A program made the translations under genes and the position numbers. From a virus: DNA of 64,000 bases. This document shows, piece by piece, positions 59,389-64,000 of the stretch (position 1 is its first letter; each line of letters opens with the position of its first letter). The notes beneath the pieces are model-generated. The model was given only the letters and a program-made list of their open reading frames with translations, was not told the origin of the DNA and searched no databases. The stretch is from IMG/VR virus record IMGVR_UViG_3300036668_000173, positions 23,313 through 87,312 of that record. One strand, written 5' to 3'.

Positions 59389-59952
59389 ATGAAAACTTAT
59401 TTAACAAGTGATCTACACTTTGGTCATAAAAACATTTTTAACTTTTGTCCTGATACCCGCTCTCGATACAAAAATGATGGGGTAGAAGATCTTGACTATA
59501 TGGCCGAGTCGATGATATCCGAATGGAATGATACCGTAGAACAAAATGACCTAGTCTACATTCTAGGTGATATTGCATTTTTACCTTCACAGTCTGCAAT
59601 AAAAATCATGAGGCGATTGAATGGCAAAAAGATTCTTATTGCAGGTAATCATGATAAGAAGACAATCAAAGATCCTGTCTTTCGTTCCTGCTTTGAGTCT
59701 ATCCATGACTATTTAGAAGTCAACTACGACGGCACAAAAATCGTAATGTGTCACTATCCTATCTATGATCACAATGGGGCGGGTAGGGGCTCCCTGATGC
59801 TCCATGGGCACCGTCACGGAAAGCCACATAACATTGAGGGTAAGATTATGGACGTGGGCTATGATGCCACAGGCGAGATCGTGATGGACATAGAGCGCAT
59901 CATTAATAAACTGAGTCATGTCCCCCACATGTACCATAATGATCCAAGATGA
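59389..59952 (+). CDS. Calcineurin-like phosphoesterase, small form
   Basis: 187 residues. TSDLHFGHKNIF, YILGDIAF, LIAGNHDKK, MCHYPIYDHNG, LHGHRHGKP: complete metal site. Typical T4-like phage phosphoesterase; substrate unknown. Confidence 0.88.
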   Translation: MKTYLTSDLHFGHKNIFNFCPDTRSRYKNDGVEDLDYMAESMISEWNDTVEQNDLVYILGDIAFLPSQSAIKIMRRLNGKKILIAGNHDKKTIKDPVFRSCFESIHDYLEVNYDGTKIVMCHYPIYDHNGAGRGSLMLHGHRHGKPHNIEGKIMDVGYDATGEIVMDIERIINKLSHVPHMYHNDPR

Positions 59953-62178: not shown

Positions 62179-62964
62179 ATGGAAATGAAAGCACTCTATG
62201 GGTTTATCTCTACTGGCGACAAAGTGGCTTTGTATACATTAAGAATTATGTATGAAGTTCCCGTTAGAACTGAGTTCGGTATTAGTTGGATCATGGAAGA
62301 GCATTATATTCGAAACTTATCGAACGACAAAGATAAGGCTCTCGAGAAGGCTAACTTGTTGTTATCTGATATGGGTTTATCATTAAAGGGTGATCCATCA
62401 TTTGACTTGAACGAAATTAAGCGTCGAAGCTCAGAGGCTCTTGAGAGCGAGCGCGACGCGCTCGCTAAGAAAACTGCCGAGATTAAGGCAGAAGCCGAAA
62501 AAGTCTTTGTCGAGGCTTGTGGTAAGAACGTTTTTTTAGTCGGTAAGCATATCGGCTTTACGCCAGAAGATGTCTACTCAAAAGATCCCAGCTATATACT
62601 TTGGTTAAACGGTATGGAAATAGAGTCAGAGATTTTAAATAAGTTTGACGTCAATGTTAAAATCGCCAAAGATTTTGTCGTGAAAAACGATATAAAAGGT
62701 CCAACCTTTGTTGGCGAGGTCGGTGAGAAAATAACATTAAATTTGACCTTGATTAAATCATACGCTCTTATTGGTTATTTTCGTTCTATTGTATTTACAT
62801 GTAAGACACCAGAAAACAATATTGTTAAGTTCTTTAGTACAGCTAAAGGATTTCTTGCATTAGAGGATGGCGATTCTTTTAGTGTAGTTGGTACAGTAAA
62901 AAGTCACAATGACTACAGTGGTAGAAAATCTACATCAATTAATCGCCCTAAGATGGCAAAATAA
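62179..62964 (+). CDS. Conserved phage protein with exonuclease-associated C part
   Basis: 261 residues. Coiled region about 85-115. Then FLVGKHIGFTPEDVYSKDPS, YILWL, an ExoX-C-like strand-helix pattern, and VGEVGEKITLNLTL ... GTVKSHNDYSGRKST, a small OB-like end. Possibly nucleic acid binding. AGGA well placed. Confidence 0.65.
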   Translation: MEMKALYGFISTGDKVALYTLRIMYEVPVRTEFGISWIMEEHYIRNLSNDKDKALEKANLLLSDMGLSLKGDPSFDLNEIKRRSSEALESERDALAKKTAEIKAEAEKVFVEACGKNVFLVGKHIGFTPEDVYSKDPSYILWLNGMEIESEILNKFDVNVKIAKDFVVKNDIKGPTFVGEVGEKITLNLTLIKSYALIGYFRSIVFTCKTPENNIVKFFSTAKGFLALEDGDSFSVVGTVKSHNDYSGRKSTSINRPKMAK

Positions 62965-63090
62965 AGGGTCGCAAAGGCTATGACCGATATATCCCTATTC
63001 GGTTATCCTCAAACAGGCGAGTACGGCGAAATTCCGTATCATAAAAATTTGTTTACACTTAGTCGAGTAAACAAAGCTCAATCAAGACTT
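62964..63090 (+). repeat. 127-bp direct repeat, copy 1
   Basis: Identical to 63874-64000; offset 910 bp. Begins AAGGGTCGCAAAGGCTATGA and covers the first 37 codons of the gene at 62980. Confidence 0.97.
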
Positions 63091-63168
63091 GAGGACAGTC
63101 GTCCAATAACCAGAAGACAATATGGGGCTTGTTTAGGGACAGGCACTATATTTGAGATGGATACATGA
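62980..63168 (+). CDS. Hypothetical protein (62 aa), start duplicated at window end
   Basis: MTDISLFGYPQTGEYGEIPY ... GTGTIFEMDT. Not recognised. AAAGG is very close to the ATG. The first 111 bp recur at 63890-64000. Confidence 0.55.
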   Translation: MTDISLFGYPQTGEYGEIPYHKNLFTLSRVNKAQSRLEDSRPITRRQYGACLGTGTIFEMDT

Positions 63169-63227
63169 GTCGCGTTGCGATAAACTTTAAGTAGAGATGT
63201 ATTCTTCTCAAATATAGTAAATAGCTG

Positions 63228-63256
63228 TTGACAAATAGTAAAAAGTAAGTTATAAT
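63228..63256 (+). promoter_or_regulatory. Perfect consensus sigma70 promoter
   Basis: TTGACA (63228-63233), exactly 17 nt, TATAAT (63251-63256). The strongest promoter seen in the window; it drives tRNA-Glu and the RNA modules behind it. Confidence 0.9.
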
Positions 63257-63292
63257 GGTTGTATAGTAAGAAATCGTTCTTTAAAAATTTAT

Positions 63293-63367
63293 GTCCCTAT
63301 AGATTATCGGTTAGATCATCACCCTTTCACGGTGGAGAGCCCAGTTCGATTCTGGGTGGGGACGCCA
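63293..63367 (+). tRNA. tRNA-Glu (anticodon TTC)
   Basis: 75 nt including encoded CCA. Acceptor GTCCCTA/TGGGGAC, D arm GATT...GATC, anticodon arm TCACC-CTTTCAC-GGTGG, T arm CCCAG-TTCGATT-CTGGG. All stems pair. Reads GAA (and GAG by wobble). Confidence 0.95.
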
Positions 63368-63372
63368 TATTT

Positions 63373-63473
63373 AAGTACATTCGTTGATCGGTGAGCAACA
63401 CAAATTGCAGATCCGCAAATGTCGATGAGTTTGGTACTCGCAGTTTAAGACGGTTCGATTCCGTAGTGTACTT
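63373..63473 (+). ncRNA. tRNA-like RNA module 1
   Basis: AAGTACA/TGTACTT acceptor-like stem encloses a D-arm-like GTTG...CAAC hairpin with GG in the loop, a TTGC/GCAA hairpin, GAG-TTTGGTA-CTC, and a T-arm-like ACGG-TTCGATT-CCGT. It has one hairpin too many for a tRNA and no convincing anticodon stem. Degenerate tRNA or new tRNA-like RNA. Confidence 0.6.
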
Positions 63474-63474
63474 T

Positions 63475-63580
63475 AATATGGTTTCTGATTGCCAATACAT
63501 GAAAGGCGTTCAACGCTGAGTACTTGTGGAGGATAGTGTCTGAGACATTGGCCCGAAGGACGGGAACAAGGTACCATATT
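63475..63580 (+). ncRNA. Stem-closed RNA module 2
   Basis: AATATGGT pairs perfectly with ACCATATT. Inside: CCAAT/ATTGG (about 63492/63547) enclosing GCG-TTCAA-CGC and TGTC-TGA-GACA hairpins, then CCCG-AAGGA-CGGG. tRNA-sized but without a T-loop. Unknown structured RNA. Confidence 0.5.
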
Positions 63581-63680
63581 GAAGTGCATTACATGACGCC
63601 TCGGCGAAGGGATTCTAGAAGCCCAGTAGCGATTAATAATTAAACATGTAGATGGGTTCGCATGGTGTAGTGTGCTTCAA
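63579..63680 (+). ncRNA. Stem-closed RNA module 3
   Basis: TTGAAGTGCA pairs with TGTGCTTCAA (10 pairs with two wobbles). Inside: CGC-CTCG-GCG, GGG...TTC-TA-GAA...CCC, and ACATG/CATGT. It abuts modules 2 and 4. Unknown RNA. Confidence 0.5.
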
Positions 63681-63734
63681 TATGGTATCAACGAAGACGA
63701 CAGGTCAGCATTATCAAATTCGATGAGGTATAAC

Positions 63735-63869
63735 ATGATTGTAAATTCTTATAACCACCCACGGGGCACCATTTGCATTGCACTAATGTACATAGGATGG
63801 CAACGAGCTTTTAAAATAGACAATCAGCACCACTATAAAGAGTTTACAGGGTGCTTTAGTATCATATAG
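63735..63869 (+). CDS. Possible small ORF (44 aa)
   Basis: MIVNSYNHPRGTICIALMYI ... EFTGCFSII after GAGGT. It lies inside a 188-nt span whose ends pair (ATATGGTAT 63680 / GTATCATAT 63859), so the segment may be RNA instead. Low confidence. Confidence 0.3.
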   Translation: MIVNSYNHPRGTICIALMYIGWQRAFKIDNQHHYKEFTGCFSII

Positions 63870-63873
63870 AATT

Positions 63874-64000
63874 AAGGGTCGCAAAGGCTATGACCGATAT
63901 ATCCCTATTCGGTTATCCTCAAACAGGCGAGTACGGCGAAATTCCGTATCATAAAAATTTGTTTACACTTAGTCGAGTAAACAAAGCTCAATCAAGACTT
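63874..64000 (+). repeat. 127-bp direct repeat, copy 2, with truncated second copy of the 62980 gene
   Basis: Exact copy of 62964-63090, ending on the last base of the window. Contains ATG 63890 and 37 codons of the duplicated gene. The match length may be set by the end of the sequence rather than by biology. Confidence 0.97.

What the first reader, a model, noticed from the sequence alone, without database searches (positions are those of the whole stretch)
63373..63870. Row of tRNA-sized stem-closed RNA modules behind tRNA-Glu
Four consecutive spans are closed by complementary ends (AAGTACA/TGTACTT, AATATGGT/ACCATATT, TTGAAGTGCA/TGTGCTTCAA, ATATGGTAT/GTATCATAT), packed head to tail under the strongest promoter seen. 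Module 1 has D- and T-arm signs but no usable anticodon arm; the others lack T-loops. They may be decoys for tRNA enzymes or anticodon nucleases, unusual tRNAs, or a new small-RNA family like T4 RNA C and D.
Basis: partly seen in the sequence, partly recalled or inferred. Interest (0 to 1): 0.8.

Follow-up and report, generated by a model that had tools for sequence, protein, structure and literature searches.

The report
Small RNA modules behind phage tRNAs
Many uncultured T4-like phages carry small folded RNAs welded directly onto the 3' CCA end of their tRNA genes, with a long stem around a swappable core; the window holds two such RNAs and a related third hairpin, and they look like an undescribed class of phage RNA.

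Summary
Modules 1 and 3 are long hairpins: 63365-63481 (CCATATT...AATATGG, starting on the CCA of tRNA-Glu) and 63574-63685 (about 21 pairs). 'Module 2' is the spacer between them. 'Module 4' is a conserved 44-aa gene. A third hairpin (63145-63218) lies just before a perfect sigma-70 promoter. The closing-stem pattern occurs in more than 200 viral loci, almost all in tRNA clusters, and in only 3 bacterial contigs. Wherever a tRNA adjoins, the module starts exactly on its CCA, which pairs with a terminal UGG. G.U pairs far outnumber A.C mismatches on the tRNA strand, so RNA is what is selected. About 215 core classes by BLAST share the stem; cores recur behind different tRNAs with different complementary arms. 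The 63145-63218 core also sits between the CCA end and the 5' end of permuted tmRNAs. Tested modules match no Rfam family; searched cores have no match in isolated phages. Best reading: accessory small RNAs expressed with phage tRNAs and freed by tRNA-end processing, like T4 RNA C/D but with a CCA-anchored stem. The decoy role is inference; no expression data exist.

The parts
63365..63481 (+). Module 1: CCA-anchored stem-closed RNA (CCATATT...AATATGG, 117 nt) with a T-arm-like hairpin next to the closing stem. Its CCA is the 3' end of tRNA-Glu.
   Evidence: core has no relative among held loci
63574..63685 (+). Module 3: CCATATT...AATATGG closing stem of about 21 pairs around a conserved three-hairpin core.
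   Evidence: alignment of 8 sequences, 13 of 34 pairs with changes on both sides (shuffled mean 4.9, 0/500)
63145..63218 (+). Further stem-closed hairpin with core GATAAACTTTAAGTAGAGAT, closed by ACTATATTTGAGATGGATACAT/ATGTATTCTTCTCAAATATAGT; not CCA-anchored here.
   Evidence: the same core is found in tRNA-cluster modules and in permuted tmRNA
63228..63256 (+). Sigma-70-type promoter TTGACA-17-TATAAT of the tRNA-Glu/module unit
   Evidence: 12/12 match; conserved leader in other loci
63276..63292 (+). boxA-like leader GTTCTTTAAAAATTTAT directly before tRNA-Glu
   Evidence: such sequences are 8-fold enriched upstream of tRNA clusters in carrier loci
63293..63367 (+). tRNA-Glu(TTC), encoded CCA shared with module 1
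   Evidence: 55.5 bits
63482..63573 (+).
63735..63869 (+).

Best explanation
The modules are accessory small RNAs that T4-like phages of uncultured bacteria carry inside their tRNA transcripts. Each sits on the seam between a finished tRNA 3' end (CCA) and whatever follows, often the 5' GG of the next tRNA. Shown by comparison: the CCA is the first three bases of a 15-22 bp closing helix ending in UGG; the helix is selected as RNA; the core inside is a conserved structured unit that can be exchanged between tRNAs, between closing stems and with the intervening segment of permuted tmRNA. Inferred: the array is transcribed like a stable-RNA operon (sigma-70 promoter, boxA-like leader); the normal enzymes that mature tRNA 5' and 3' ends cut the module out; the blunt terminal helix protects it; the freed RNA acts in trans. 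The diversity and reassortment of cores fit RNA antagonists or decoys of host proteins that act on tRNAs, but no target was identified.
For: Exact 3-nt overlap with the upstream tRNA's CCA in 172 of 312 modules; no other offset up to 12 nt. For stems found on nt 4-18 alone, 216 of 250 end in UGG opposite the CCA. Stems of at least 15/16 pairs follow 223 of 2495 tRNAs, against 8 at a shifted control position. G.U about 367 against A.C about 7 in stem columns 9-16, read from the table. Last GG shared with the next tRNA in about 60 cases. Covariation in the module-3 class and the hairpin class, and in 70 of 256 core pairs over 16 classes. The same core behind different tRNAs and with different arms, with another 22-bp stem and no tRNA in L273, and between CCA and 5' GGGG of permuted tmRNA as an insertion outside the Rfam consensus. 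No terminator-like tail in most (32 of 371). Virus-restricted: 3 hits in genome contigs. Module-bearing Glu/Lys/Gln/Leu tRNAs are mostly single copy in their loci (172 against 10), so they must be released to serve.
Against: No expression data. Without the arms, cores fold only slightly better than shuffles (mean z -0.44), so core structure rests on covariation in the better-populated classes. No partner gene is common to carriers. The bias for Glu, Lys, Gln and Leu tRNAs is not explained. How a tRNA end with a base-paired CCA is processed is unknown.
Confidence: 0.55

Rival explanations
1. The modules are only processing spacers: hairpins that present the tRNA 3' end and the next 5' end to nucleases, and are then destroyed.
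For: Always on the CCA seam where a tRNA adjoins; also in the permuted-tmRNA intervening segment, which has to be removed; the stem is the strongest feature.
Against: Many unrelated cores (about 215 BLAST classes), several with covarying structure and long invariant loops, would not be needed for a spacer; a module-3 core also occurs with a different stem and no tRNA on its 12-kb contig.
Confidence: 0.25
2. The modules work as DNA: attC-like or MITE-like hairpin sites through which tRNA cassettes are shuffled.
For: Imperfect palindromes of 63-156 bp with constant ends and variable centres; cores reassort among tRNAs.
Against: Strong strand asymmetry of G.U over A.C points to RNA; cores are conserved and covary; no recombinase or other gene family was common to carriers, the widest being in 42 of 202 loci.
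Confidence: 0.1
3. The modules are degenerate tRNAs or tRNA mimics retaining an elongated acceptor stem.
For: T-arm-like motifs in 33 of 373, including module 1.
Against: Most carry no T-arm, and those scanned score no tRNA model.
Confidence: 0.1

Closest known systems
Phage T4 stable RNAs C and D (species 1 and 2)
   Same: Small RNAs in the tRNA transcript; rnaD begins 1 nt after tRNA-Arg; rnaC ends with a T-arm-like hairpin; function unknown to me.
   Different: No CCA:UGG closing stem (T4 tRNAs); the module pattern is absent from T4.
GOLLD and ROOL RNAs (Rfam)
   Same: Phage and prophage noncoding RNAs encoded near tRNA islands, function unknown (PMC12286853).
   Different: GOLLD members often exceed 800 nt; modules are 63-156 nt. 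The window and the loci scanned match neither Rfam model.
Permuted tmRNA intervening segment (RF04321, RF01850)
   Same: Element lying between a tRNA-like CCA end and a 5' GGGG; in at least 14 contigs it carries the same core as window 63145-63218.
   Different: The core is an insertion outside the Rfam consensus and also occurs in tRNA clusters away from tmRNA.
Inter-tRNA segments of Vibrio phages KVP40 and nt-1
   Same: Segments of about 100-220 nt between tRNAs, conserved between the two phages, some with closing stems.
   Different: Shorter stems that do not include the CCA; only one of three ~100-130-nt segments with a closing stem folds clearly better than chance.

Membership tests
T4 RNA C/D | Encoded inside a tRNA transcript directly next to a tRNA | tested here: met
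   Exact CCA overlap in 172/312 modules; T4 rnaD 1 nt behind tRNA-Arg
T4 RNA C/D | Sequence or stem homology with rnaC/rnaD | tested here: not met
   Module pattern absent from T4; no CCA-anchored stem in T4
T4 RNA C/D | Accumulates as a stable RNA | not testable with these tools
   No RNA data held
GOLLD/ROOL | Match to the Rfam covariance model | tested here: not met
tRNA | Match to RF00005 or ARAGORN | tested here: not met
   Only tRNA-Glu called in the window; module 1 23 bits to tRNA-Sec, cut-off 47
Permuted tmRNA | tmRNA body flanking the element | tested here: not met
   Window has no tmRNA, although one core is shared with tmRNA intervening segments
Integron attC sites | Function as folded single-stranded DNA without RNA constraint | tested here: inconclusive
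   G.U/A.C asymmetry and covariation argue for RNA; recombination not tested

The most novel reading that the evidence does not exclude
A hidden layer of phage biology: a superfamily of small RNAs with exchangeable cores, expressed by welding them to tRNA and tmRNA ends, many of them serving as RNA-based counter-defence or host-takeover factors.
Probability: 0.35. Interest if true: 0.93.

Novelty: new variant of a known kind. Interest (0 to 1): 0.8.

Why it matters
The T4 stable RNAs C and D have, to my knowledge, stood without a function for decades. This finding gives a rule for spotting such RNAs (a long stem that begins on the CCA of a tRNA and ends in UGG), finds them in hundreds of environmental phage loci, and shows that their cores are conserved modules that move between tRNAs and permuted tmRNA. 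That makes expression, processing and anti-defence roles testable.

Tried and rejected
Close protein relatives of the 261-aa neighbour: none. The small ORF 62980-63168 was the useful probe. Recalled Rfam 'skipping-rope' motif: no Rfam hit to it in the regions scanned. Isolate phages: no match to arms or to 38 cores. Weak Gordonia hits lie in portal genes and are chance. CCATATT clusters in the first 20 kb of the contig lie in a repetitive surface-protein gene. Terminator reading: rejected, few T-rich tails. Pairing of N73 with the base after UGG: mostly A-T and G-T, no clear covariation, not claimed. Duplicate-tRNA decoy idea: rejected, bearing tRNAs are mostly single copy in their loci. Literature searches in the open-licence library found no description. 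In one search the tRNA counts printed as zero are an input error of the script; one search replaces them.

Full report
WHERE IT LIES. The window is the last 64 kb of an 87,312-bp viral record. The contig stops at window position 64000, 131 nt inside a direct repeat (62960-63090 against 63870-64000, 99%). The phage carries T4-type replication genes; its DNA polymerase is closest to Phage C48C1 and Synechococcus phages.

CHECK OF THE OBSERVATION. Two of the four modules are real and larger than described: 63365-63481 and 63574-63685. Both start with CCATATT and end with AATATGG. The first CCA is the 3' end of tRNA-Glu. The second reported module is the spacer between them. The fourth holds a conserved 44-aa gene. 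The promoter is a perfect TTGACA-17-TATAAT, followed by a leader resembling the rrn boxA element. I recalled the boxA resemblance from general knowledge; the leader is conserved in other carriers, and boxA-like words are 8-fold enriched upstream of tRNA clusters.

IT IS A WIDESPREAD ELEMENT. A relative (L005) has the same tRNA-Glu followed by several more such units between tRNAs. Among 318 modules in 221 loci, all but 6 have tRNAs in the same locus. The upstream tRNA's CCA is the module's CCA in 172 of 312, and no other offset up to 12 nt occurs. Of 30 large carriers, 21 encode the T4-type capsid protein Gp23, some on contigs of 345-400 kb. In one search, 18 of the 30 matched the pattern with the 40-70 gap and the reversed pattern matched none. 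Nine isolate phages lack the pattern and eight of them lack CCA-anchored stems.

IT IS SELECTED AS RNA. The search pattern allowed G.U and A.C equally at its purine/pyrimidine columns. On the tRNA strand, columns 9-16 hold about 367 G.U cells against about 7 A.C cells (my sum from the table). When stems are sought only on nt 4-18 behind the CCA, 216 of 250 are followed by UGG, so pairing of the CCA itself is conserved. Other arm sequences occur, and they keep CCA...UGG.

THE CORES. Interiors fall into about 215 classes by BLAST. This is an upper bound: distant relatives may be split, and a few entries are composites that contain a whole tRNA. The same core is found behind different tRNAs and with different complementary arms. 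Over 16 classes, 70 of 256 core pairs show changes on both sides. For the module-3 class (8 sequences) 13 of 34 pairs change on both sides against 4.9 in shuffles, 0/500. In L273 the module-3 core is closed by an unrelated 22-bp stem, on a 12-kb contig with no tRNA. Without arms, cores fold only weakly better than shuffles (mean z -0.44), so the covariation is the evidence.

LINK TO PERMUTED tmRNA. The hairpin at 63145-63218 has the core GATAAACTTTAAGTAGAGAT. It recurs in 37 viral contigs: in tRNA clusters (L081, L355, L363 with ATATT-type arms) and, in at least 14 contigs, between the 3' CCA part and the 5' GGGG part of permuted tmRNA. ARAGORN calls these tmRNAs, Rfam does so for the six scanned, and the core is an insertion relative to the Rfam consensus. 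Its closing stem is 100% paired with wholesale covariation while the loop is invariant. So modules occupy the seam between a CCA end and a following 5' G in two RNA systems.

MECHANISM. Shown by comparison: position, RNA-level selection, core conservation and reassortment. Inferred: co-transcription with tRNAs, release by tRNA-end maturation, protection by the terminal helix, action in trans. Bearing tRNAs of the four main isotypes are mostly the only copy in their locus, which argues that the module is cut off rather than left in place. Modules prefer Glu (59/143), Lys-UUU (43/101), Gln (26/94) and Leu-UAG (26/117) tRNAs; none follows Asp, Ala, Trp or Met (0 of 133, 111, 109, 236). The loci were gathered by module patterns, so absolute rates are inflated, but the isotype contrast stands. 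Phage tRNAs are known targets and tools in tRNA-cleaving defence (PMC11555353; PMC13096335), which makes an antagonist role plausible, not shown.

NOVELTY. In the regions scanned no module matches an Rfam family, and no description was found in the open-licence library. That library excludes most subscription papers and preprints, so an earlier description elsewhere cannot be ruled out. T4 RNA C and D are the nearest kind by position; the CCA-anchored stem and the exchangeable cores are new relative to them.

Noticed in passing
window 62960-63090 and 63870-64000: 131-nt direct repeat (99%) flanks the tRNA-Glu/module unit and the contig ends inside it; possibly a tandem amplification of a tRNA locus, as reported for T6 (PMC13096335), or an assembly break.
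   Followed up: partly
carrier loci: Modules follow Glu, Lys, Gln and Leu tRNAs far more often than other isotypes, in dozens of independent core classes; unexplained.
   Followed up: partly
L337 and L338 (KVP40 and nt-1 tRNA arrays): Conserved inter-tRNA segments of about 100-220 nt in two isolated Vibrio phages, some with closing stems or a T-arm; an accessible model system.
   Followed up: partly
L003 10919-11273; L345-L348, L351-L354, L356, L357, L359, L363, L366, L375, L377: Permuted tmRNA genes on phage contigs, most with a shared conserved core in the intervening segment.
   Followed up: partly
L005 6528-6588; L003 6939-7037: tRNA-like genes without an anticodon arm or with an extra insertion inside the carrier arrays.
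   Followed up: no
window 59389-59952: A metallophosphoesterase family (phrog_547 in the window) is the commonest protein neighbour of modules, in 42 of 202 loci; I take the window gene to be of the same family by its similar N-terminus.
   Followed up: no
window 62980-63168 and 63735-63869: Two small ORFs of unknown function (62 and 44 aa) travel with the module cluster in relatives.
   Followed up: partly
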